From the NCBI RefSeq assembly GCF_030866805.1, contig NZ_CP133019.1, forward strand, positions 1,302,001 to 1,366,000: a stretch of 64,000 bases of DNA. Direction: 5' to 3'. This document shows positions 46,750 through 56,423 of the stretch, in pieces. Below the pieces are notes generated by a model. That model was not told the DNA's origin and made no database searches. It saw only the letters and a program-made list of their open reading frames with translations. Each line of letters opens with the position of its first letter. The stretch's first letter is position 1. Position numbers and translations under genes: made by a program. This stretch comes from Microbacterium terrisoli (GTDB taxonomy: Bacteria; Actinomycetota; Actinomycetes; Actinomycetales; Microbacteriaceae).

Positions 46750-46825
46750 GCCCCCATAGCCCAATGGCAGAGGCAGGCGACTTAAAATCGCTTCAGTCTG
46801 GGTTCGAGTCCCAGTGGGGGCACCA
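46750..46825 (+). tRNA. tRNA with UAA anticodon (nominally tRNA-Leu) and short variable loop
   Basis: 76 nt with encoded CCA. The acceptor is 46750-46756 with 46815-46821 and the discriminator is A46822. Anticodon stem GGCGA/TCGCT, loop CTTAAAA, anticodon TAA (46783-46785). T arm CTGGG-TTCGAGT-CCCAG. The variable loop is only 5 nt (46793-46797), whereas bacterial tRNA-Leu normally has a long variable arm. A -10 TACGCT (46736-46741) lies 8 nt upstream. Confidence 0.85.
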
Positions 46826-46907: not shown

Positions 46908-47645
46908 CTAGCCGATCTGCGAAACCGCCTGCGCGATCACGACGGCCAGCAGAACGAAGCCCGCGAAGGACTCGAGGGCCATCAACGCCTTCGCACGCGT
47001 CGACAACGGCATCGTGTCGGTCGCGCTGAACGCCATCGAGTTGCTCAGCGAGACGTAGAGGTAGTCCACGAAGGCAGGCACCCAGTCGCTCTTGGCCGAT
47101 GAGCCCTTCGCGACTTCGACGACGGTGTCCTCATCCTCGTCCTGGGGAAAGCGGAAGTCCGCCGCGGGCATCTCCGCGCGCGGCACCATGGTACGGGCGA
47201 CCGGGCCCGCGCGGTCGATGCACCAGAACACCAGCGCGAAGCCGATGACATTCGTCACCCACACCTGCAGCGCGGCTAGCAGCAGTCCGGAGCCCTCCGT
47301 GGACTTCTGCACCAGCTGCATGATCAGCAGCACCAGTGTGAGCTGGTTCGCGGCGACGATCACCAGCGCCAGCCCGAGCTCACCGAGCCGGGACAGTCGC
47401 GTCTCTTTCACATAGTGGTGCGGATTGATCGCGACCAAGGGGATCAGGAGGAGCAGCCCGATCGCCACCACGACATAACGCTGTGCCGCAAACAGACCGC
47501 TCGGCAGGAAGGTGTACAGGGCGAGCGCGATGAGCACGCCGACGACCACGGGCCAGCGGAGCTCGGGCCGTGCGGTCCGACTCTCACCCGCTCCGGCCCC
47601 GCCCTCCTCGGCGTCTTTGCTTGAAGTCTTCGCATGGTCTGCCAT
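46908..47645 (-). CDS. DUF1345 membrane protein
   Basis: 245 residues. A charged N-terminus (~25) then five or six helices. The C-terminal DYLYVSLSNSMAFSATDTMPLSTRAKALMALES segment is the DUF1345 signature, reminiscent of an ion-channel pore region. Function unknown. The ATG at 47645 has AGGAGAG upstream. It carries one of the shared GTCAA-N28 promoters. Its end lies 82 nt from the tRNA and the genes converge. Confidence 0.85.
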   Translation of the reverse strand: MADHAKTSSKDAEEGGAGAGESRTARPELRWPVVVGVLIALALYTFLPSGLFAAQRYVVVAIGLLLLIPLVAINPHHYVKETRLSRLGELGLALVIVAANQLTLVLLIMQLVQKSTEGSGLLLAALQVWVTNVIGFALVFWCIDRAGPVARTMVPRAEMPAADFRFPQDEDEDTVVEVAKGSSAKSDWVPAFVDYLYVSLSNSMAFSATDTMPLSTRAKALMALESFAGFVLLAVVIAQAVSQIG

Positions 47646-47700: not shown

Positions 47701-47741
47701 ACGATCCCGCGGACGGGCGTGGGCGGTAAGGGGCTTGACGA
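47701..47741 (-). promoter_or_regulatory. Shared stress-type promoter, DUF1345 gene
   Basis: Minus strand: box TCGTCAA (47741-47735), 28 nt, hexamer GATCGT (47706-47701) followed by GG. The box lies in a GGGGCT-N5-AGCCCC dyad. About 55 nt before the ATG. Confidence 0.6.
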
Positions 47742-47996
47742 GCCCCGGCGCGTCTGTCAGGAGTGCTCACGTGGGCGCGCCCGCGACTACACCGCGATCG
47801 CCGTTGGGCCTGTCGTCCCTGCTCTCGTTCCGTCGGTCGCGCCCGCGATCACCGCATCCGCGATGCTCGCGCCTCTGCGACGCCGGATGGGCACATCCGA
47901 CGTGGGCGCGCATGCAGGCCGACCGACGGAACGAAGCAACCCCATGTCGGAATCATCGGCGAGGGCGGGGTCGGCAGAGAAGGGGATTGATCCCGG
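47742..47996. other. Gene-free stretch
   Basis: No reading frame here has family resemblance or a credible ribosome-binding site. Frames that cross it on either strand are shadows or spurious. I see nothing further. Confidence 0.5.
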
Positions 47997-48044
47997 CCGT
48001 CGGTTGACGTATAGGCGATACGAGCGTGCGTGCTCAACCGACGG
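47997..48044 (-). repeat. 11-bp inverted repeat spanning the DUF7882 gene stop codon
   Basis: CCGTCGGTTGA and TCAACCGACGG flank 26 nt, the stop codon lying in one arm. A possible terminator with a large loop. Confidence 0.6.
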
Positions 48045-48354
48045 ATTCACTCGCGACATCGGCCGGTTCCTGCACCAGCCGCAGACCGCCGACCGCATTG
48101 GCCGCCTCGGCGAGCAGCTGGAGCCAGGCACGGTTGATGCTCGGCGGCCGGCTGCCCTGGTATTTGAACACGAGGGACGAGCTTTGATTGATCCATATCG
48201 TCGTGCGGCCGCCGCCCACGCTCGGCTCCGCGTACCAAGTGAAGGTGACGGGCTCGCCGCGGCGCAGCTTGTCGGAGATCACGACCTGGAGATGGGCGAG
48301 GGGCCGGTCATCGATCTCCATCTTGACCCGGCCCTCATAGCTCAGGTACCCCAT
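48034..48354 (-). CDS. DUF7882-type small protein, paralogue 1
   Basis: 106 residues. Begins MGYLSYEG, then a VxxEIDDRPLAHLQVVISDKLRRGEPVTFTW segment and a GRTTIWINQSSSLVFKYQGSRPPSINRAWL segment, a pattern seen in small Microbacteriaceae proteins (often misnamed DNA ligases). Function unknown. Two more copies follow within 1.1 kb. A -10 TACAGT lies 33 nt upstream inside a dyad also seen before the LuxR gene. Confidence 0.75.
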   Translation of the reverse strand: MGYLSYEGRVKMEIDDRPLAHLQVVISDKLRRGEPVTFTWYAEPSVGGGRTTIWINQSSSLVFKYQGSRPPSINRAWLQLLAEAANAVGGLRLVQEPADVASESVG

Positions 48355-48376
48355 CTGCGTGCGGTTCGGATGTCAT

Positions 48377-48395
48377 CCACAGTGGTCACTGTAGC
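48377..48395 (-). promoter_or_regulatory. Dyad and -10 TACAGT upstream of DUF7882 paralogue 1
   Basis: CCACAGTG-GT-CACTGTAG, 7 of 8 arm positions paired. The right arm read on the minus strand contains TACAGT. The 14-mer GTGGTCACTGTAGC (48382-48395) recurs exactly at 52629-52642 before the LuxR-type gene. Confidence 0.45.
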
Positions 48396-48534
48396 TGTGG
48401 CGGCCTCACCCTTCGGGGTGAAATCCCGCTGCCTGCGGCCCCGCCCACCCGCTCACTCACTGCCGGGACGCAGGACTGTGGGGACGCGGCTCAGCCGACT
48501 CGATCCCGCCGGAAGGGGTCTGGGCGAGGACGAT

Positions 48535-48888
48535 TCATTCGGCCGCGGAGGGAACCGGCTTCTCCCCCCCTGCCATCCCTGCGAGCGGCTCGGGGGTCGG
48601 TTCCCGAGTGAGCCGAAGGCCGGAGAGGGAATTGGCCTCGACGGCCAGCGCCTCCAGCCACGCCCGGTTCAGTTCCGGCTGGCGACTGCCGTAGTACTTG
48701 AACACGATGTTCGCCTGCGAGCTCAGCCACACCGTCGTGCGCCCTTGGCCGTAAGACGGATCATCGAACCAGGTGAACGGAAACGCCTCGTTGCGGCGGA
48801 GCTTGTCGACGATCACGAATTGCAGGTGGAAGAGGGCACGATCTTCGATCTCAGTCTTGACGGACTCCTCGTAGATGAATTGGCCCAT
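48535..48888 (-). CDS. DUF7882-type small protein, paralogue 2
   Basis: 117 residues, beginning MGQFIYEES and keeping the ALFHLQFVIVDKLRRNEAFPFTW and GRTTVWLSSQANIVFKYYGSRQPELNRAWLEAL blocks, so clearly homologous to paralogue 1. A divergent C-terminal tail (residues 95-117) is Pro/Ala/Glu-rich. GGAGAG lies upstream of the ATG. Shares a divergent gap with paralogue 3. Confidence 0.78.
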   Translation of the reverse strand: MGQFIYEESVKTEIEDRALFHLQFVIVDKLRRNEAFPFTWFDDPSYGQGRTTVWLSSQANIVFKYYGSRQPELNRAWLEALAVEANSLSGLRLTREPTPEPLAGMAGGEKPVPSAAE

Positions 48889-49091
48889 GGTCCAGCTCTC
48901 CTCCGGTCTCACGACGTCGCACCGCATTGCGCCGCAGTTCTGGGCATTCGCTTCGTTCCGCCTCGCTCTGCCCCACAATATCGTGCAGACCACTGTGACG
49001 GTGCAACGCCGTCGGGCGCGCAGATGGCCCCATACTTGGCTGGGGAGCTATTGCTCACCGTCCAGGCGACCTGATGAACCGGAGCGGCACC

Positions 49092-49439
49092 ATGGGCACG
49101 ATGTACTACGGCGGTCCCGATACAGCGATCCACATCGAGGACCGTGCGCTTGCACACTTGAAGGTCGTCATCGCGACCAAGCTGCGGCGGGGCGAGAGCT
49201 TCACCCTGTCATGGCAGCACCCGGACGGCGAGCCGCGTGGTCGCTCCACCGTGTGGCTGCATCCGTCGATACCGTTGCGGTTCGTGTTCGATGCACCGCA
49301 GCCGCCGGAACTGAACCGGGAGTTCCTGCACGACCTGGCGAACTCGGCCAACACCTCCGGTGGGATCCAGCTGATCGCCGAGCACATCCACATCACACCG
49401 GACGACGCGGCCGCTGCCGCCCCATCGCCTCAGGAATAG
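49092..49439 (+). CDS. DUF7882-type small protein, paralogue 3
   Basis: 115 residues, beginning MGTMYYGG, with the shared IHIEDRALAHLKVVIATKLRRGESFTLSW and GRSTVWLHPSIPLRFVF blocks. ATG 49092 is chosen for the GGAG 7 nt upstream (an ATG at 49074 is less likely). Divergent from paralogue 2; the gap 48889-49091 contains the AT-rich CACAATATCGTG, a possible -10 or operator. Confidence 0.78.
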   Translation: MGTMYYGGPDTAIHIEDRALAHLKVVIATKLRRGESFTLSWQHPDGEPRGRSTVWLHPSIPLRFVFDAPQPPELNREFLHDLANSANTSGGIQLIAEHIHITPDDAAAAAPSPQE

Positions 49440-49501
49440 CCGCTGCCGCCGGAGAAGACAAGCCCGTGGACGGCTCGGGCATGCGGTGCGATCCTGGCGA
49501 G

Positions 49502-50038
49502 ATGGACGACACGACGGCCTCGGCCGGATCCGAGGATTCGACCGAGGCCATGCGCGGCGAGCCCCGTGACCGGAACGAGACAACGGCGGAACGGGCGGAC
49601 CGGAACTGGACCGATCTGCTGCAAGAACTCCGGGTCACTCAGACCGGAACACAGTTGATCGCAGGGTTCCTGCTGACACTGCCGTTTCAGCAGCGCTTCA
49701 CCGAGCTGGGAACTCTGCAGCTGGTGATCTACATCGTGCTCGTGTTTCTCGCCGCATTCGCGACGGGGATCGGCCTGGCGGCCGTCGCCTTGCACCGGGG
49801 TCTGTTCCGCCGACACCGAAAGCCGCTCTTGGTGGCCACGGGCGACAAGCTCCTGCGCGTGAACGTCGGCCTGACCGCGCTGCTCACTTCGGGCATCGTG
49901 CTGCTGATCACAGACGTGGTGTGGGGCAGCAGTCTGCTCGGCTGGGTCTGCGGGGCGGTCGTGCTGGTCGTGCTGGCCATGCTGCTGTGGCTCGTGCCGG
50001 CCCTTGAGCGCCGGGCAACGCAGACGACCGGGCGCTGA
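49502..50038 (+). CDS. DUF6328 membrane protein
   Basis: 178 residues. A charged N-terminal ~35 residues, then four helices; the RNWTDLLQELRVTQTGTQLIAGFLLTLPFQQRF segment is the family signature. Function unknown. The start is uncertain: ATG 49481 upstream in frame is possible. 60 nt downstream of paralogue 3 on the same strand. Confidence 0.75.
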   Translation: MDDTTASAGSEDSTEAMRGEPRDRNETTAERADRNWTDLLQELRVTQTGTQLIAGFLLTLPFQQRFTELGTLQLVIYIVLVFLAAFATGIGLAAVALHRGLFRRHRKPLLVATGDKLLRVNVGLTALLTSGIVLLITDVVWGSSLLGWVCGAVVLVVLAMLLWLVPALERRATQTTGR

Positions 50039-50119
50039 GGAGCGCCCGGTCGGCTGCGCGTTGCGACCCGCGGCGCCGCGCAGCCGGCAGGCCACCGACG
50101 ACGCCGCGGATCATGCGCG

Positions 50120-50284
50120 TCACACGCGGTTGCGTCCGCCGACCAGTCGGAACAGGAAAGCGATCAGCGCGATGACGCCGACGATGATCGCCACCCACAG
50201 CAACCACGACAGAGCGGCATTGAGCCCGCTGAAGATGGCCACGATGATGGCGACGATGACGATGATGGCGAGCACGATATTCAT
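50120..50284 (-). CDS. 54-residue two-helix membrane protein
   Basis: Almost entirely hydrophobic (two helices, about 3-20 and 27-47) with a short basic end (GGRNRV). AGGAG 6 nt before the ATG supports it. Small hydrophobic proteins of this type are often stress-induced. It carries one of the shared GTCAA-N28 promoters. Confidence 0.75.
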   Translation of the reverse strand: MNIVLAIIVIVAIIVAIFSGLNAALSWLLWVAIIVGVIALIAFLFRLVGGRNRV

Positions 50285-50332
50285 GGCGACTCCTGTTCTG
50301 CGTCGAGCCGTGGTGCCGACGTCCGATACCCC

Positions 50333-50373
50333 AATCTGCCAGTCCAGCAGGCGGACGCACACCCGCTTGAACA
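50333..50373 (-). promoter_or_regulatory. Shared stress-type promoter, 54-residue membrane peptide
   Basis: Minus strand: box TGTTCAA (50373-50367), 28 nt, hexamer CAGATT (50338-50333) then GG. About 49 nt before the ATG. The box is one base off the consensus. Nothing else is recognised in 50374-50570. Confidence 0.55.
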
Positions 50374-50570
50374 TCCAGGGCAAGCATGCTATCAGGGTGC
50401 CTGGGCGCGCCTCGTCCGTTTCTCCACTTCGTGACATCGTCGGACGTCGCCGTCGATGTCGCCGCGAACCGGCAGTCCGAGTTCCTGCAGTTCTGCCGCC
50501 TTCAGACCGGCGCGGCCAGGCGAGGACCAGTCCGCGTCCTCGCGGATGGCGAGCCCGCGCGAGCCGCCTC

Positions 50571-50611
50571 TTGTCAAGGGCCTCGTCGTGGGCCGGTGTC
50601 GTGCGTAGCGT
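50571..50611 (+). promoter_or_regulatory. Shared stress-type promoter, SDR gene
   Basis: Box TTGTCAA (50571-50577) within CTTGTCAAG, 28 nt, hexamer TAGCGT (50606-50611) then GA. The ATG lies 33 nt on, with GGAGGAAGG between. Confidence 0.6.
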
Positions 50612-50644
50612 GACGCCGAAGCGACCACGGGAGGAAGGACAGTC

Positions 50645-51535
50645 ATGAGCATGCCGAACAATGCCGGTGACCCGCGCGACGAGTATCGGGAGGAGGGCTT
50701 TCCCGGCCAGGAGCAGGATCAACCCGGCCAACTCGAGGAGACAAGGCCCCGACCCGATCATGGTGAGCACAGCTACCGCGGCCATGGGCGGCTGCAGGGG
50801 CGCAAGGCGCTCGTCACCGGAGGCGACTCCGGCATCGGCCGGGCGGTCGCGATAGCCTTCGCCCGTGAGGGGGCCGATGTCGCGATCGCTCATCTGCCTG
50901 AGGAGCAAGGGGATGCGAACGAGACCGTCCGCCTCATCCGTGACGCGGGACGCGAGGGGCTCAGCCTGCCCGGCGACGTGCGGGACGAGGCGTTCGCCGC
51001 GCAGATCGTCGACCGCACGCGAACCGGACTGGGCGGCCTCGACATCCTGGTGCTCAATGCCGGGTATCAGAAGGACCGGGCCGGCCTGGCGACCCTGGAG
51101 ACGGCTGAATTCGATCGGGTGCTGCGGACCAATCTCTACGGCCTCATGTTCACGGCGCGAGCGGCCGTGCCGGGCCTGGAGGCCGGGGCGTCGATCATCG
51201 TGACGGCGTCGATCCAGGCGTTCCAGCCGTCGCCGACCCTGATCGACTACGCCATGACCAAGGCTGCGCAGGTCGCGTTCGTCCGCGCCCTGGCCGAGGA
51301 GCTCGGCCCCGCAGGCGTGCGGGTGAACGCGGTGGCACCGGGGCCGATCTGGACGCCCCTCATTCCGGCGACCGGCTGGGACGAGGAGAAGCTGAACGCA
51401 TTCGGACAGGACACGCCTCTGGGGCGTGCCGGACAGCCCGCGGAGGTGGCGGGCGCCTACGTCTACCTCGCCTCGGAAGAGGCCTCGTATGTCTCCGGGG
51501 CCGTGTTGCCGGTCACCGGGGGAAAACCGCTGTGA
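50645..51535 (+). CDS. SDR-family oxidoreductase (YghA/YhxC-like)
   Basis: 296 residues: a hydrophilic N-terminal ~50, then a classical short-chain dehydrogenase. Cofactor loop TGGDSGIGRA, LNAGYQ, catalytic Ser in VTASIQ and Tyr/Lys in DYAMTKAAQ, and PGPIWTPL. This subgroup is commonly found with general-stress genes; the substrate is unknown. Shared GTCAA-N28 promoter. Confidence 0.88.
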   Translation: MSMPNNAGDPRDEYREEGFPGQEQDQPGQLEETRPRPDHGEHSYRGHGRLQGRKALVTGGDSGIGRAVAIAFAREGADVAIAHLPEEQGDANETVRLIRDAGREGLSLPGDVRDEAFAAQIVDRTRTGLGGLDILVLNAGYQKDRAGLATLETAEFDRVLRTNLYGLMFTARAAVPGLEAGASIIVTASIQAFQPSPTLIDYAMTKAAQVAFVRALAEELGPAGVRVNAVAPGPIWTPLIPATGWDEEKLNAFGQDTPLGRAGQPAEVAGAYVYLASEEASYVSGAVLPVTGGKPL

Positions 51536-51550
51536 CGGGGGCGCCTCCCG

Positions 51551-51844
51551 TCAGGGGATATCCTCCGCGGACGCGCCCAACAGCCGCCGTGCCAGGGCCT
51601 TGATCCGCGCGGCGGCCTCGGACGCTCCGGCCAGGACATCCGCATCGGGGGGCGAATCCTCGCTCGCGACATCCGTCCCGCCGAGCACGACCGAACAACT
51701 GCGCAGACGTCCGCCGGCCGCGATCGGTATCGTCACGACGTCGGAGGTGCCCGCGCCACGGAGCGCATGCTCATAGAGGAGGACGGCGTCCGCGACCTCG
51801 TTGGTGGTTTGGAAGCGCCCGCCCGCGACGACGAGATCCCTCAT
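51551..51844 (-). CDS. Hypothetical protein, 97 residues
   Basis: Unrecognised. Predicted soluble, with hydrophobic beta segments around GTSDVVTIPIAAGGRLRSCSVVLGG and a charged helical C-terminus (AAARIKALARRLLG). The ATG overlaps the stop of a 20-codon reading frame (ATGA), so coupling to that frame is likely. It lies downstream of the LuxR-type regulator on the same strand. Confidence 0.6.
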   Translation of the reverse strand: MRDLVVAGGRFQTTNEVADAVLLYEHALRGAGTSDVVTIPIAAGGRLRSCSVVLGGTDVASEDSPPDADVLAGASEAAARIKALARRLLGASAEDIP

Positions 51845-51903
51845 GGCGTCACCGTCGGCCGGTCGTGGTCCCTGTCGGTCGAGCTGTCAGTATCGCTGCT
51901 CAT
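51841..51903 (-). CDS. 20-residue leader reading frame
   Basis: MSSDTDSSTDRDHDRPTVTP, Asp/Ser/Thr-rich. GGAG 5 nt before the ATG and an ATGA overlap with the 97-residue gene support translation. It may only serve to couple translation. Confidence 0.45.
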   Translation of the reverse strand: MSSDTDSSTDRDHDRPTVTP

Positions 51904-51976
51904 CTTGTCTCCGTGCAGAACGATACGGGCCGCCGCCCGCACGACGCACGGGGATTGCAGGACAGCGCGTGCCGTG

Positions 51977-52627
51977 CTAGCGCGGTGCGTGCGCGGTGGC
52001 CCCCGCCTTCGCCGGGCGGAAGCCGTGGTCGACCCCCCAGAGCACCGCATTGGCCCGATCACCGACCCCGATCCGGCGATAGCAGGTGCGGATGTGCGTC
52101 TTGACCGAGTTGACCGAGAGATGCATCCGTTCGGCGATCTCGTCGTTGGAGAGTCCCTGCGTGATGAGGGCGAGGACCTCGCTCTCGCGCAGCGTCATGC
52201 CTTCTTCGCGGCCCGGCCAGTCGTTGCCGACCGGTGCGGCGAAACGGCGCGGTCGTCCATCGTCCGGGTGCCGCCCGGCGTGCACCGCGATCAGCGCTTC
52301 CACCAGTTTGGCAGCCGGCAGCGCTTTGGACAGATACGCATCGGCGCCATGGTCGAGTGAAGCCTGGATGAGGTCGCCGTCGAGGTTCCACGTGTATACG
52401 GCCACGCGTCGTGCGTGGCCGTTCTCGACCAGACGACGAACATCGCGGTGATCACCGGGGAACGCGGCGAACGTGTCGTAGAGGGCGATGTCCACCGTCT
52501 GCTCGACATCCTCGTTCGCATCGAGCTCGACCACTCGAACGACATCGCTGTAGCTGCGCAGCATGGCAGCCACGCCTTCAACGACGACCTGATAGTCGTT
52601 GACCACCGCGATCCGGATCTGGCCCAC
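51977..52627 (-). CDS. LuxR/NarL-family response regulator
   Basis: 216 residues. N-terminal receiver-like domain: an acidic site in VVNDYQ, an Asp in IALYDTFA at the phosphorylation position and Lys in YLSKAL, but the usual MPD after the Asp is replaced. C-terminal LuxR helix-turn-helix (LTLRESEVLALITQGLSNDEIAERMHLSVNSVKTHIRTCYRRIGV). No histidine kinase nearby. GTG 52627 has a -10 TACAGT 7 nt upstream (leaderless); GTG 52636 is alternative. The only regulator in the island, so a candidate activator of the shared promoters (inference). Confidence 0.88.
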   Translation of the reverse strand: MGQIRIAVVNDYQVVVEGVAAMLRSYSDVVRVVELDANEDVEQTVDIALYDTFAAFPGDHRDVRRLVENGHARRVAVYTWNLDGDLIQASLDHGADAYLSKALPAAKLVEALIAVHAGRHPDDGRPRRFAAPVGNDWPGREEGMTLRESEVLALITQGLSNDEIAERMHLSVNSVKTHIRTCYRRIGVGDRANAVLWGVDHGFRPAKAGATAHAPR

Positions 52628-52628
52628 G

Positions 52629-52642
52629 GTGGTCACTGTAGC
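52629..52642 (-). promoter_or_regulatory. Leaderless promoter of the LuxR-type gene (-10 TACAGT) in a shared 14-mer
   Basis: TACAGT (minus strand 52640-52635) lies 7 nt before GTG 52627. The surrounding 14-mer is identical to that upstream of DUF7882 paralogue 1. Confidence 0.45.
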
Positions 52643-52658
52643 CCACGCGCCCTCATCC

Positions 52659-53627
52659 TCACCGCTCGTCGGCCAGGAGGCGGCGGATCGCCGACTCCGG
52701 ACGCAGCCCGAGTTCGAGGAGGCGCCCGGCCCGATAGGCCGTGAACACGCCTGGGGCGATGTAGCTGCCGCGGGCGACAGCCGGTGTGTTGCCCAGAGAC
52801 TGCGCCACCGCCCGCACGGCGACGGCCTCGGCGTGCTTCCGCGTGCGGGCGTCGTCCGCGAGGCCGATCCGGGCCAGGGCGCGCGCGGCGAGGACCGTGC
52901 CGTGCAGCGTGCGGAAGTCCTTGGCGGTGAAGTCACCCCCCGTGATCTCACGGATATGCCTGTTCACGTCGGTCGGCGTGAGCCGGACATGTCGGCGCCC
53001 GACCGGGTACCACAGCAGGGGAGCGCGCCCCGGCCCGGCAGCAAGGGGCTCCATTGCGGCCGCGAGCTCGGCGTCATCGATCTCGAGGAGGGCGCGCTTT
53101 CCGCTCTTGGCGGGAAACGACAGTGTCACCGTGGGCGCCGCGATCACGGCATCGCGTCGCCGCAACGTGGTCAGTCCTCGGCTGCCGTGGCGCGCGAGAT
53201 ACCGATCGGAGCCGACGCGCGGCGCCGCCTCGTCGAGCAGCCGGAAGGCGACCGCCAAGGCATGATCACGGTCGAGCGTGCCGCGGCGCAGCGCCGAGGT
53301 GACCCGACCCCGGGCACCGGGGAGCGCTTCGGCGAGCTCCAGCGCGCGAGCGAACTTGCCGCGGTCTCGGCCAGCACGCCAGCGGGGGTGATACAGATAC
53401 TGCGTACGACCGGCCTCGTCGGTGCCGACCGCCTGGATGTGGCCCAGCGGCGCCGCCGAGATCCACACGTCGTCCCATGCCGGCGGAATGACCAGCTGCT
53501 GGATGCGCCGCCGGTCTGCGCGGGCCGCATCGCGGCCGCTCTCGTCGAGATAGCGGAAGCCCGATCCGGCACGTACCCGTCGATAGCCGGTGTCGACGCG
53601 CGGTCGGACCCGCGCGAGCCTGGCCAC
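52659..53627 (-). CDS. DNA topoisomerase IB (poxvirus type)
   Basis: 322 residues. Relaxes supercoils through a 3'-phosphotyrosyl link. The catalytic Tyr is near residue 289 (RGSYIAPGVF); the active-site Arg/Lys set is seen in the GLTTLRRRDAV and KDFRTLHGTVLAARAL segments. Typical of bacterial TopIB, which is frequent in stress or DNA-repair gene groups. GTG start, 7 nt after an 86-residue gene with which it forms an operon. Confidence 0.9.
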   Translation of the reverse strand: MARLARVRPRVDTGYRRVRAGSGFRYLDESGRDAARADRRRIQQLVIPPAWDDVWISAAPLGHIQAVGTDEAGRTQYLYHPRWRAGRDRGKFARALELAEALPGARGRVTSALRRGTLDRDHALAVAFRLLDEAAPRVGSDRYLARHGSRGLTTLRRRDAVIAAPTVTLSFPAKSGKRALLEIDDAELAAAMEPLAAGPGRAPLLWYPVGRRHVRLTPTDVNRHIREITGGDFTAKDFRTLHGTVLAARALARIGLADDARTRKHAEAVAVRAVAQSLGNTPAVARGSYIAPGVFTAYRAGRLLELGLRPESAIRRLLADER

Positions 53628-53633
53628 GACGGC

Positions 53634-53894
53634 TCACTCCACCGAGCTCGACAGCGGCGTGCCCTTCTCCGACGCGCCGGCGAGCGACGCGGGCCGAGCG
53701 CCTGCCGGCCGCGGGCAGGCGTCCATGTTCTGGCGACGCCGCGCAAGTTCGGCCGTCAGCGCGCGCTCGCGCGATCGGAGCGAGAAGCAGTCCCCGCTCT
53801 CGCGCCCCTTCTCGACCTGCTCGAGAGCGATCAGCAGCTCGCGAATGGTGGCCTGGCTCATGTCGCCGATCAGTTCACCCGATGACTCACCCAT
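53634..53894 (-). CDS. Hypothetical protein, 86 residues, upstream of topoisomerase IB
   Basis: Unrecognised. N-terminal helix MSQATIRELLIALEQVEKGR and a charged helix RSRERALTAELARRRQN suggest a short coiled coil, then an unstructured Pro/Ser tail. ATG 53894 is chosen (GGGAG 8 nt upstream); ATG 53909 is possible. Cotranscribed with topoisomerase IB; a shared GTCAA-N28 promoter lies about 100 nt upstream. Confidence 0.6.
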   Translation of the reverse strand: MGESSGELIGDMSQATIRELLIALEQVEKGRESGDCFSLRSRERALTAELARRRQNMDACPRPAGARPASLAGASEKGTPLSSSVE

Positions 53895-53993
53895 CAGATC
53901 CGCTCCCATTCTGAAGCACCTGCTTCGTCCGCGGGGGCCGGTCCCGCGACGCACCCCCCCGAGTGGTCGCGGGACCCTTGCCCCTCGACCAGA

Positions 53994-54034
53994 ATCCTGA
54001 CATCCACTCCCGAGAACGCGTGCGGGGTTGACTT
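53994..54034 (-). promoter_or_regulatory. Shared stress-type promoter, topoisomerase IB operon
   Basis: Minus strand: box AAGTCAA (54034-54028), 28 nt, hexamer CAGGAT (53999-53994). The leader is about 100 nt. The opposite strand of the box reads TTGACT, a possible -35 with TAAACG near 54051 for the FHA gene. Confidence 0.5.
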
Positions 54035-54106
54035 CGATGGGCGCGCGGTGCTAAACGGTGCGAGACCGCGCGGGAGGTCGCTCGGAGGAGGCAGATGACG
54101 CGGGCC

Positions 54107-54147
54107 TCGTCAAGCCCCTGTCGCGCCCGGTGTGCCGGGCCGAGCAT
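54107..54147 (+). promoter_or_regulatory. Shared stress-type promoter, FHA gene
   Basis: Box TCGTCAA (54107-54113), 28 nt, hexamer GAGCAT (54142-54147) then GG. The ATG lies 42 nt on, with GGAGG 4 nt before it. Confidence 0.6.
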
Positions 54148-54189
54148 GGAGGCACGCGTCGAGGCCGGCGCGGCTGGACGGGAGGAAGC

Positions 54190-54657
54190 ATGATCAAGCC
54201 AGAGATATCCACGACGCATGCCGGGTGGGGCGAGGGGAGGCCGCGCCTGATCATCGTCGGCGGCGGAGACCGTACCGAGGTGGCGTTGCAGCACGATGTC
54301 ACGCGCATCGGCTCGGGGCCGGATGCCGACATCCGACTGGACGGCATCGGCACGGTGGCCGGTGAGGTGGTCCACGATGAGATGGACGAATACGTCTTCG
54401 TTCCGCATGAGCCAGCTCAGACCAGCGCGCGTCCGGAACCGATGGGCACGGTCACCGGCCAGGACGGCGTGGTGCTGCGCACGGGCGCCCGGTTCGCTCT
54501 GGGGAGCTGGTCGTTCGTGTACATGCGCGACGAGTTCGCCGACCACGGCCGGCCATACGGCGGACGCGAGGGCGGCGAAGGCGAACATCAGCGGAGCCAG
54601 CCCGAGCGCCCCGACTACTCGGCGGAGGTGCCGGAGACGGACGCAGAATCTGACTGA
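54190..54657 (+). CDS. FHA-like domain protein
   Basis: 155 residues. The central region has the FHA pattern: VTRIGSGPDADIRLDGIGTVAGEVVHDEM, then TVTGQDGVVLRTGARFALGSWSFVYMRDEF. FHA domains bind phosphothreonine peptides. The core Arg and Gly-Ser are kept and the usual Ser-x-x-His is altered, so binding is uncertain. The C-terminal 40 residues are hydrophilic and acidic. No kinase gene nearby. Confidence 0.75.
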   Translation: MIKPEISTTHAGWGEGRPRLIIVGGGDRTEVALQHDVTRIGSGPDADIRLDGIGTVAGEVVHDEMDEYVFVPHEPAQTSARPEPMGTVTGQDGVVLRTGARFALGSWSFVYMRDEFADHGRPYGGREGGEGEHQRSQPERPDYSAEVPETDAESD

Positions 54658-54678
54658 CGCCGCCCGGCACCCTCCCCC

Positions 54679-55257
54679 TCAGCCTCGTGGTTCGCGGTTC
54701 TCCGCGCTCACCATCCAGGAGAGCTGTTCGATCCGCTCGAGAATCGTATGCAGGATGTCGGCGGTGGTCGGATCCTCCGCGTCCACGTCATCGTGCACCC
54801 GGCGGCACGTGTGGGCGACTGCGTCGAGCCGCTTCGTCATCGCCCCGATCACGACCGGCGTCGCCAGTTCCCCCTGCTCGATGGTGGGCAGGGTCGTGGT
54901 CGCCGACACGACATCGCTGCGGCCATCAGGCAGCGCGTGCAGCGAGCGCATCCGCTCGGCGATCATGTCGGCGAACACGCGGGCGTCGGCGACGATCTCA
55001 TCCAGCTGCAGATGGGTGTCGCGGAAATTCGGCCCCACCACGTTCCAATGCGCCTGCTTGCCCTGCAGTGCGAGTTCGATCAGGTCGACCAGCACGGCCT
55101 GCAGGTGCCCGCTCAGCTTCTGCGATGCGGCGAAACCGGACTCCGCGTTCTGTTCTGCGGTCAGCCGGTCGTCGATCTCGCGGGCCGCGGTCTCGTCGGC
55201 CTTCGACTTCTTGGGCCTGGTCTTCTTCGGACTGGCTTTCTTCGTGTCGGTGCTCAT
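54679..55257 (-). CDS. dps: Dps-family ferritin-like DNA-protection protein
   Basis: 192 residues. Dodecameric iron-oxidising protein that shields DNA. Ferroxidase residues seen in KQAHWNVVGPNFRDTHLQLDEI (H70, H82, D86). A Lys-rich N-terminal tail of about 20 residues (KKASPKKTRPKKSK) should bind DNA. AGGAGG just upstream of the ATG. Follows csbD on the same strand, with a strong hairpin between them. Confidence 0.93.
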   Translation of the reverse strand: MSTDTKKASPKKTRPKKSKADETAAREIDDRLTAEQNAESGFAASQKLSGHLQAVLVDLIELALQGKQAHWNVVGPNFRDTHLQLDEIVADARVFADMIAERMRSLHALPDGRSDVVSATTTLPTIEQGELATPVVIGAMTKRLDAVAHTCRRVHDDVDAEDPTTADILHTILERIEQLSWMVSAENREPRG

Positions 55258-55270
55258 GATTCCTCCTGGT

Positions 55271-55304
55271 GGTGCGGGGCAGGCCGCGGGGCCTGCCCCG
55301 CACC
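55271..55304 (-). terminator. Perfect 14-bp hairpin between csbD and dps
   Basis: Arms 55271-55284 and 55291-55304, 6-nt loop. It lies directly before the dps ribosome-binding site, so it may be an attenuator, processing site or partial terminator. Confidence 0.7.
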
Positions 55305-55311
55305 GGGTCGG

Positions 55312-55485
55312 CTACTTCTTGAATGCGTCCTTGACGTTCTCAGCGGCGTCGCGGAGGTGGCCCTTGGTCTGGTCGGCCTTGCCTTCCGCGACGAGCTTCT
55401 CGTCGTCGGACACATGTCCGACGGACTCCTTGATCTTTCCGCCGCCCTTCTCGGCAGCGGCCTTGATCTTGTCATCTGCACTCAT
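55312..55485 (-). CDS. CsbD-family stress protein
   Basis: 57 residues, hydrophilic: DKIKAAAEKGGGKIKESVG, then GKADQTKGHLRDAAENVKDAF, the CsbD pattern. General-stress induced in many bacteria; molecular role unknown. AAGGGA precedes the ATG. Likely first gene of a csbD-dps unit, with a shared GTCAA-type promoter (29-nt spacing). Confidence 0.9.
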   Translation of the reverse strand: MSADDKIKAAAEKGGGKIKESVGHVSDDEKLVAEGKADQTKGHLRDAAENVKDAFKK

Positions 55486-55534
55486 CGGTTCGTTTCCCTT
55501 CTGATCTGGTCTTGCGGTCTGGCATTGAGCGTCC

Positions 55535-55576
55535 ATCGTGGGCCGCGTGGGTGCCGCACCGCGACCGGGTTGACTA
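55535..55576 (-). promoter_or_regulatory. Shared stress-type promoter, csbD-dps
   Basis: Minus strand: box TAGTCAA (55576-55570), 29 nt, hexamer CACGAT (55540-55535) then GG. About 50 nt before the csbD ATG. Confidence 0.55.
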
Positions 55577-55707
55577 TTGCGCTCGCGTGAGATACCGGGG
55601 AGACAGGGCGGCATAGGACATGCTGCACTCCCGCGCAAGGGGGTTGGCATGGCTGCACCGACCCGGCAGGCTGATGATCGTGAGCCGGTCCAAGGGGAGG
55701 TACGGTG

Positions 55708-56028
55708 ATGGCGCAACGGCGATCGGGAGATCCGCTGCGGGTGACCGCGCAACCGGCCCTGACCACCTCCACCGGACGTCGGTGGCTGATCTGGGGCGCC
55801 GTGCTGGCCGCGGTGTCGGTTGGAGTGCTGGTCGCCTTGGCACTCGTGCGCAACCCGGCCGGCTGGGTGGCCGTCGCGATCGTGATCGCGCTCTATCTGG
55901 CGATGGTGGTCGTCCGCGTCGTCGTCGCGGCGACACGCGCACGACTCATTGTGCTCGCGTGCCTGATGGGCGCGATCGCCATTGTCGCGCTGGTGTCGAT
56001 CGTCGTGGTGGGCGCGCTATCGGCGTGA
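55708..56028 (+). CDS. Small membrane protein, three helices
   Basis: 106 residues: a basic N-terminus (~25) and three helices (about 27-47, 53-72, 80-103). GGAGG lies 7 nt before ATG 55708 (GTG 55705 possible). Function unknown. Upstream GCGCAA (55633-55638) is 28 nt from CAGGCT (55667), a poor match to the shared promoter. Confidence 0.7.
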   Translation: MAQRRSGDPLRVTAQPALTTSTGRRWLIWGAVLAAVSVGVLVALALVRNPAGWVAVAIVIALYLAMVVVRVVVAATRARLIVLACLMGAIAIVALVSIVVVGALSA

Positions 56029-56066
56029 AACCCCCGCGCCGGCGGCTGATACGAATCTGCGGCGAG

Positions 56067-56107
56067 TTGTCAACGCCCTATCCGCCGGGCGGTGCCGAGC
56101 CTAGCGT
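56067..56107 (+). promoter_or_regulatory. Shared stress-type promoter, DUF7218/Rho-N gene
   Basis: Box TTGTCAA (56067-56073) within GTTGTCAAC, 28 nt, hexamer TAGCGT (56102-56107) then GG. The ATG lies 46 nt on, with AAGGAGAGAG between. Confidence 0.6.
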
Positions 56108-56153: not shown

Positions 56154-56423
56154 ATGCCGCGCACATCCACACCGAAGAGCCTGAAGGACCCCGAGCTGTA
56201 CGAAGAGCTGCGCGACGACGGCGCCTCCAAAAGCAAGGCGGCTCGCATCTCCAATGCGGCGGCAGCCCAAGGCCGCAGCCGAGTCGGTCGCCGTGGCGGT
56301 GAAGCCGCCGATTATGAGGACCGCACCGTGGCGCAGCTGCGGGCGCGCGCGAAAGAACTGGGGCTGCACGGATACTCGGGCAAAACCAAGGCGCAGCTCA
56401 TCGAGATGCTCCGCAATCACTGA
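56154..56423 (+). CDS. DUF7218-like protein with Rho-N/SAP-type motif
   Basis: 89 residues. The N-terminal LKDPELYEELRDDGASKSKAARISNAAAA segment is a plasmid-stabilisation/DUF7218-type motif; the C-terminal RTVAQLRARAKELGLHGYSGKTKAQLIEMLRNH is a clear Rho-N/SAP helix pair that can bind nucleic acid. Together this suggests a small DNA-binding stress protein (inference). The end overlaps the convergent DUF3618-like gene by 7 nt. Confidence 0.85.
   Translation: MPRTSTPKSLKDPELYEELRDDGASKSKAARISNAAAAQGRSRVGRRGGEAADYEDRTVAQLRARAKELGLHGYSGKTKAQLIEMLRNH

What the first reader, a model, noticed from the sequence alone, without database searches (positions are those of the whole stretch)
47701..56107. 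Seven transcription units share a GTCAA - 28 nt - NANNNT promoter layout: possible undescribed stress regulon
Seen directly: upstream of DUF1345, the 54-residue membrane peptide, SDR, topoisomerase IB operon, FHA, csbD-dps and the DUF7218/Rho-N gene there is a box (TCGTCAA, TGTTCAA, TTGTCAA, AAGTCAA, TCGTCAA, TAGTCAA, TTGTCAA). After exactly 28 nt (29 for csbD) comes a -10-like hexamer (GATCGT, CAGATT, TAGCGT, CAGGAT, GAGCAT, CACGAT, TAGCGT). GG follows the hexamer in five cases. In six of the seven the hexamer lies 30-60 nt before the start codon. The positions where a -35 should be are poorly conserved. The box then centres near -43, a class II activator position, and is partly palindromic (CTTGTCAAG). 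Inference: one activator controls all seven; the island's LuxR-type regulator is a candidate.
Basis: partly seen in the sequence, partly recalled or inferred. Interest (0 to 1): 0.8.

Follow-up and report, generated by a model that had tools for sequence, protein, structure and literature searches.

The report
Microbacteriaceae stress promoter with upstream box
A conserved promoter layout, an asymmetric GTCAA(C/G)CCCCT box 22 bases before a TAGCGT-like -10 element and no visible -35, sits in front of stress-protection genes in one family of soil and plant bacteria, which points to a general-stress regulon whose regulator is still unknown.

Summary
Four of seven sites (DUF1345, SDR, FHA-labelled gene, DUF7218) are the four best matches in 64 kb to a profile built from other genomes; topoIB and csbD are weak, the 54-aa peptide site degenerate. 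In 59 genus genomes the pattern occurs 199 times, versus 14 reversed and 27 with a decoy spacing. All 8 SDR orthologs at >=70% identity keep the box, 7 with spacer 22. A strict form occurs in 9 of 29 Microbacteriaceae genomes and 0 of 318 of other families. ATG lies exactly 6 nt after the hexamer in 32 of 159 sites, as in leaderless mRNAs, so the hexamer is a true -10. The box (-45 to -34) is asymmetric. Targets include Dps, SDR, CBS, DJ-1/PfpI and BrkB-like genes. The proposed LuxR regulator is refuted: 5 of 59 genomes have it, none of the 13 motif-richest. Sigma-B/F/G passes its cut-off in 0 of 23 genomes. Most likely: housekeeping RNA polymerase recruited by one unidentified activator. No description was seen in the paper searches made.

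The parts
47701..47739 (-). Promoter site before DUF1345 gene: box GTCAAGCCCCT 47739-47729, hexamer GATCGT 47706-47701, spacer 22
   Evidence: rank 3 of window
50333..50371 (-). Degenerate site before the 54-aa membrane peptide: TTCAAGCGGGT, hexamer CAGATT
   Evidence: score 1.2, but 7 of 8 orthologous promoters score well at the matching place (4 of 5 if loci fetched for that site are left out)
50573..50611 (+). Promoter site before SDR gene: GTCAAGGGCCT, hexamer TAGCGT 50606-50611
   Evidence: 8 of 8 orthologs at >=70% identity, own included, have the box
53994..54032 (-). Weaker site before the topoisomerase IB operon: GTCAACCCCGC, hexamer CAGGAT
   Evidence: rank 30; one Salinibacterium topoIB has a consensus site directly upstream (L119)
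54109..54147 (+). Promoter site before the FHA-labelled gene: GTCAAGCCCCT, hexamer GAGCAT
   Evidence: 8 motif-fetched loci hold a related gene behind the site
55535..55574 (-). Weak site before csbD-dps: GTCAACCCGGT, hexamer CACGAT, spacer 23
   Evidence: rank 10; not found in the closest csbD relatives
56069..56107 (+). Promoter site before the DUF7218/Rho_N gene: GTCAACGCCCT, hexamer TAGCGT
   Evidence: best match in the window
46908..47645 (-). DUF1345-like membrane protein gene
   Evidence: 21.7 bits, below Pfam cut-off 31.8
50120..50284 (-). 54-aa membrane peptide gene; relatives form the largest target cluster
   Evidence: 17 loci; no Pfam family
50645..51535 (+). SDR oxidoreductase gene
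52659..53627 (-). Topoisomerase IB gene, with a small ORF upstream of it (about 53634-53909)
54190..54657 (+).
54679..55257 (-). dps gene (Ferritin family)
56154..56423 (+). DUF7218/Rho_N gene
51977..52627 (-).
49457..49495 (+). Possible eighth site: GACAAGCCCGT, spacer 22, GATCCT, with ATG exactly 6 nt later (gene at 49502)
   Evidence: score 13.4 in this genome, but 0 of 8 orthologs

Best explanation
The layout is a real, family-specific promoter class that defines a general-stress regulon of Microbacteriaceae. Shown by sequence: an asymmetric box GTCAA(C/G)CCCCT(C/G) at about -45 to -34, 22 (sometimes 21 or 23) nt before a TA(G/C)(C/G)GT -10 element, no visible -35, conserved in front of orthologous genes, a part of them leaderless by position. 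Inferred: RNA polymerase with the housekeeping sigma factor cannot use these promoters alone. A single activator binds the box as a monomer or asymmetric dimer next to sigma region 4 and the alpha C-terminal domain, recruits the enzyme under stress or in stationary phase, and so does the job that sigma-B does in other Gram-positives. The activator has not been identified; it is not the island's LuxR-type protein, and no candidate was seen beside the sites.
For: Genus-wide 199 hits vs 14 (reversed pattern) vs 27 (decoy spacing 4 nt shorter) in the same 59 genomes. Strict pattern in 9 of 29 Microbacteriaceae and 0 of 318 genomes of other families of the order. SDR orthologs at >=70% identity, fetched by protein: 8 of 8 have the box, 7 of 8 with spacer 22 chosen freely from 15-30; the eighth (L211) has the box without a -10 at 22. 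Peptide orthologs 7 of 8, or 4 of 5 not fetched by that site. Negative control: DUF7882 genes of the same islands, 0 of 58 upstreams over threshold for each of two overlapping queries. Logo of 92 sites: no -35; first -10 base T in 74 of 92; the A and last T were fixed by the seed. ATG exactly 6 nt after the hexamer in 32 of 159 sites, other offsets 0-10, in many different gene families. Recurrent targets of stress type (Pfam). Sigma-B/F/G: 0 of 23 over cut-off. In Curtobacterium aetherium, of the same family, CsbD and GlsB genes are induced by desiccation (PMC12029717: abstract, passages and section 3.8.4 seen).
Against: No expression, start-site or binding data were available for these promoters. 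The regulator is unidentified, so 'one activator' is inferred from one motif. The logo and the 22-nt spacing partly reflect how sites were collected; protein-anchored sets show drift (TTCAASCCCCC, GTCAAGGGGGT, spacers 21 and 23). csbD of this genome lacks ortholog support, the eighth candidate site too. Only 3 of the 18 further loci in the SDR search (52-63% identity) showed a plausible site (L215, L216, L231), though 8 of them could not be measured. The Curtobacterium paper has no mention of Dps, SDR or YihY in its main text, and its genome was not checked for the motif.
Confidence: 0.72

Rival explanations
1. The island's LuxR-type protein (51977-52627) is the activator of all sites.
For: It lies in the island; a 43% identical relative lies beside a motif-bearing gene in Leucobacter (L135).
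Against: Found in 5 of 59 genus genomes, none among the 13 richest in motif; motif counts in carriers (4,1,3,3,1) are not higher than in others. Its own upstream has no site (0.2). The box is not palindromic.
Confidence: 0.02
2. An alternative sigma factor (sigma-B/F type or ECF) reads box and hexamer directly as -35 and -10.
For: The target list resembles sigma-B regulons (recalled); stress regulons are often run by sigma factors.
Against: Box to hexamer is 22 nt (28 from GTCAA), against 16-19 for sigma factors (recalled), with no conserved -35 between. No SigB/F/G over cut-off in 23 genomes; the one near-cut-off protein is in G007, which has one motif hit. ECF genes were not surveyed.
Confidence: 0.1
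3. A sigma-region-4-bound co-activator of the WhiB kind, rather than a classical activator, reads the box just upstream of the -35 position.
For: Asymmetric element at the edge of the sigma-4 footprint; all 23 genomes tested have WhiB proteins, at least two each.
Against: About 11 conserved bases is more than WhiB proteins are known to read (recalled). The WhiB counts do not separate motif-rich from motif-poor genomes, but the motif-poor set is not a true negative set.
Confidence: 0.12
4. GTCAA is the reverse complement of a TTGAC -35 of a divergent promoter, and the hexamers are chance.
For: AGTCAA/TTGTCAA read backwards are near-consensus -35 hexamers, e.g. at 54032 and 55574 (read).
Against: Fixed distance and orientation to the hexamer and the downstream gene, starts at 6 nt, and conservation of the CCCCT half.
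Confidence: 0.03

Closest known systems
Sigma-B general stress regulon of Bacillus and Listeria (recalled)
   Same: Type of target genes: Dps, CsbD, general-stress oxidoreductases and small stress proteins
   Different: Promoter sequence and spacing differ; no sigma-B/F/G protein over cut-off in 23 genomes
Class II activator promoters with weak or no -35, e.g. PhoB, Spo0A or MarA/SoxS-dependent (recalled)
   Same: Activator box abutting the -35 position, functional -10, fixed spacing
   Different: Single non-palindromic 12-nt box without direct repeat; no such regulator identified here
WhiB7-sigma-A promoters of actinobacteria (recalled)
   Same: Asymmetric upstream element next to sigma region 4, housekeeping sigma
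   Different: WhiB7 promoters keep a -35 and have a short AT-rich element (recalled); here GTCAASCCCCT and no visible -35
ECF41/ECF42 sigma promoters (recalled: TGTCACA / TGTCGAA ... CGT)
   Same: Similar TGTCAA-like letters
   Different: About 30 nt instead of 16-17 between the elements

Membership tests
Activator-dependent (class II-like) promoter | Activator box at a fixed distance next to the -35 position | tested here: met
   199 hits at the observed spacing vs 27 at one decoy spacing; 7 of 8 SDR orthologs with spacer 22 among 15-30
Activator-dependent (class II-like) promoter | Weak or absent -35, functional -10 | tested here: met
   By sequence only: logo of 92 sites; ATG 6 nt after the hexamer in 32 of 159. 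Function itself was not measured.
Activator-dependent (class II-like) promoter | A known activator binds the box | not testable with these tools
   No binding or expression data
Sigma-B/F/G regulon | Genome encodes a SigB/F/G sigma factor | tested here: not met
   TIGR02980 over cut-off in 0 of 23 genomes, own included; G007 at 224.4 of 234.35 bits
Sigma-B/F/G regulon | Sigma-B type -35/-10 (GTTT ... GGGTA, recalled) at sigma spacing | tested here: not met
   -10 is TA(G/C)(C/G)GT and no -35 is conserved
ECF sigma promoter | -35 and -10 16-19 nt apart (recalled) | tested here: not met
   22 nt from box to hexamer, 28 from GTCAA
LuxR/NarL-regulated promoter (island regulator) | Regulator co-occurs with the motif | tested here: not met
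   5 of 59 genomes, none of the 13 motif-richest
LuxR/NarL-regulated promoter (island regulator) | Palindromic box (recalled for homodimers) | tested here: not met
   Logo GTCAASCCCCTS
LytTR-regulated promoter | LytTR protein in genomes with the regulon | tested here: not met
   Found in 8 of 23 genomes, but not in the own genome nor in motif-rich G001 and G021

The most novel reading that the evidence does not exclude
A whole bacterial family runs its general stress response without a dedicated sigma factor: one still unnamed activator that reads an asymmetric 12-nt box recruits housekeeping RNA polymerase to -35-less, often leaderless promoters of Dps, CsbD, SDR, CBS and other protective genes.
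Probability: 0.5. Interest if true: 0.78.

Novelty: new variant of a known kind. Interest (0 to 1): 0.63.

Why it matters
How actinobacteria without sigma-B, such as the Microbacterium-group genomes tested here, control their stress proteins was not described in any paper the searches turned up. A motif this specific gives a ready bait to isolate the regulator, a list of target genes including many small proteins of unknown function, and a promoter class for work in this family.

Tried and rejected
LuxR as regulator: rejected by distribution. Sigma-B/F/G. LytTR. WhiB: present in all 23 genomes tested, not discriminating. Regulator gene among targets or recurrent neighbours: none recognised by eye in the cluster lists; not tested with HTH profiles, and one search printed only clusters of three or more loci among the first 60. 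Comparing genomes with and without the regulon: abandoned, because genomes first taken as lacking it keep drifted boxes (TTCAASCCCCC before csbD in G020 and G024, and also in G016) or a consensus one (G018); hence the 10 motif-poor genomes are not true negatives. Enumerating the own regulon with up to 3 mismatches: the reversed control (31) exceeds the hits (9), and I trust only the five hits with <=2 mismatches. DUF7882 neighbours as members: rejected. Literature: the box letters occur in 76 papers, of which the 25 listed look unrelated by title; six further text searches (up to 12 listings each, titles and abstract starts seen) showed no description of this motif; one search was a background search on sigma-B regulons. 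Most subscription journals are not held.
Full report
CHECK OF THE OBSERVATION. Six have GTCAA and the 54-aa peptide has TTCAA; hexamers follow at 28 nt, or 29 for csbD. In the 150 nt upstream of these seven genes, 6 of 7 carry GTCAA with NANNNT at 28-29, against a mean of 0.02 and maximum of 2 in 5000 Markov shuffles. Allowing any pentamer and any spacing from 10 to 35, the best real combination (GTCAA, 28) occurs in 5 of 7, and 300 shuffles never exceeded 3.

THE MOTIF IN OTHER GENOMES. GTCAASNCCCT-N23-ANNNT occurs 199 times in 59 genomes of the genus, against 14 for the reversed pattern and 27 when the gap is made 4 nt shorter (counted from its table). In 30 loci, one per genome as returned, a rough codon-position test put 29 sites outside coding DNA (heuristic). 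A stricter form, GTCAASCCCCTS-N21-TANNGT, was found in 9 of 29 Microbacteriaceae genomes and in 0 of 318 genomes of other families of the order; the own genome has no match to this strict form. A looser form over 249 genomes of the family matched 102 genomes, with lower reversed-control counts; many listed hits there look like chance coding matches, especially in small genomes (by eye). By title I set 44 aside (other phyla, one Streptomyces, one unplaced Actinomycetes MAG); the other 76 are Microbacterium, Agromyces, Plantibacter, Leifsonia, Protaetiibacter, Homoserinibacter, Salinibacterium, Klugiella, Leucobacter, Rathayibacter, Microterricola, unnamed Microbacteriaceae and two unresolved actinobacterial MAGs.

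ANATOMY. In 92 distinct sites with spacer 22 (11 more have 23), the conserved positions are GTCAA(C/G)CCCCT(C/G) and T-A-(G)-(C)-(G)-T, with a T preference just before the box and C(-1)A(+1) at the presumed start. Positions -33 to -15 carry little information, so no -35 is visible. Letters fixed by the search seed are not independent evidence there. Independent evidence for the -10 comes from start codons: ATG lies exactly 6 nt after the hexamer in 32 of 159 Microbacteriaceae sites, 7 nt in 10 and 8 nt in 5, and at every other offset from 0 to 59 in 0 to 8; among the 44 set-aside sites the count at 6 is 0. The 32 belong to many different proteins, some of them orthologs of each other. This is what leaderless mRNAs starting at the first base of the start codon would give. 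The box is not palindromic and no second copy shows in the logo.

PROTEIN-ANCHORED TESTS. SDR relatives were fetched by protein, without using the motif, from 30 genomes; 26 loci from 19 genomes came back. All 8 at >=70% identity (own included) have the box, and the best-scoring spacer among 15-30 is 22 in 7 of 8; L211 has the box but no -10 at 22. Of three at 62-63%, two have GTCAAGGGGGT or GTCAAGGGGTT with spacer 21 before the SDR start and the third has no convincing site. Of 15 at 52-57%, likely paralogs, 8 could not be anchored and one of the other 7 has a moderate match (L231). The 54-aa peptide has a good site in 7 of 8 orthologs at the position where this genome has its degenerate one; three of the eight loci were fetched by that site, and of the other five four score well. 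DUF7882 genes, which sit in the same islands, have none in 58 upstream regions for each of two overlapping queries; relatives of the gene at 49502 have none in 8. 0 of 15 relatives at 67-79% identity do (one has a GTCAAGGGGGT variant), while 6 of 11 in a separate subgroup at 61-64% do; antisense control regions gave 0. So csbD membership in this genome rests on the weak site alone.

THIS GENOME. A profile made from 130 sites of other genomes ranks DUF7218, SDR, DUF1345 and the FHA-labelled gene 1 to 4 in the window; csbD is 10th and topoIB 30th. Outside the window, close matches lie before a small acidic protein gene (3142935) and before a gene resembling, by eye, the iron-containing redox enzyme family (3300132). 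A similar gene in G021 (L075) also carries the site and is PF14518. A further match, at 1532381, was not assigned to a gene.

TARGETS. Recurrent downstream genes in the collected loci, as numbers of sites in one cluster, are: 54-aa membrane peptide 17, SDR 14 (one, L151, a more distant SDR), Dps 11, BrkB-like 10, FHA-labelled 8, CBS 7, two families of small acidic proteins 7 and 6, DUF7218 5 (one of them the own genome), a roughly 116-aa family 5; many others occur once. Pfam names for representatives: BrkB, CBS, Transgly_assoc (GlsB-like), pyridoxamine-oxidase-like, DJ-1/PfpI, iron-containing redox enzyme, CsbD; 3 of the 10 scanned had no family. A second batch gave DUF2188, PRC-barrel, TspO, DUF72, DUF4383 and others. 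The automatic choice of the downstream gene favoured leaderless starts, so single assignments are provisional; the offset test did not use that choice. Such lists are typical of general stress regulons (recalled). In Curtobacterium aetherium several CsbD and GlsB genes rise on desiccation (PMC12029717; abstract, passages and one section seen); Dps and SDR are not mentioned in its main text. This fits but does not test the motif.

REGULATOR. Sigma-B/F/G is not found over cut-off in 23 genomes; each genome has one match of about 130 bits, which I take to be RpoD, some have weaker ones that may be flagellar sigma factors, and G007 has a 224-bit protein just under the cut-off of 234. LytTR is missing from the own genome; WhiB does not discriminate. 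ECF sigma, AraC and response-regulator families were not surveyed. What remains is an unidentified protein that reads an asymmetric site. The variants TTCAASCCCCC and GTCAAGGGG (5 and 4 distinct sites in the held loci, 0 in reversed controls) suggest that CAA is the core and that specificity drifts between clades, a handle for finding the protein by covariation.

VERDICT. No published description was seen in the searches listed, which do not cover most subscription journals. No expression data were available, so function, inducing signals and regulator remain inference.

Noticed in passing
window 49457-49502 (+): Possible eighth site, GACAAGCCCGT-N22-GATCCT with ATG exactly 6 nt later, before a 178-aa membrane protein gene whose relatives sit beside dps in several other genomes; 0 of 8 orthologs have it.
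   Followed up: partly
L293, L296, L298 (csbD upstreams); L215, L216, L284, L054: Drifted boxes: TTCAASCCCCC before csbD in three genomes and GTCAAG-GGGG-type boxes with spacers 21 or 23 in four loci; none in reversed controls.
   Followed up: partly
window 48034-49439: DUF7882-type genes (one Pfam-confirmed, PF25355, at 49092-49439) recur in these islands in many species yet lack the promoter motif.
   Followed up: partly
window 46750-46825 (+): A tRNA-Leu (taa) lies directly beside the start of the stress-gene island, a possible integration boundary.
   Followed up: no
   Followed up: no
L135:585-1253 (Leucobacter chromiisoli): A 43% identical relative of the window's LuxR-type protein lies beside a DUF7882-like gene and a motif-bearing DUF2188 gene.
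   Followed up: no
L233 (G007): One genome of the genus has a sigma-B/F-like protein just below the family cut-off (224 of 234 bits); the best match in the other 22 tested is about 130 bits.
   Followed up: no
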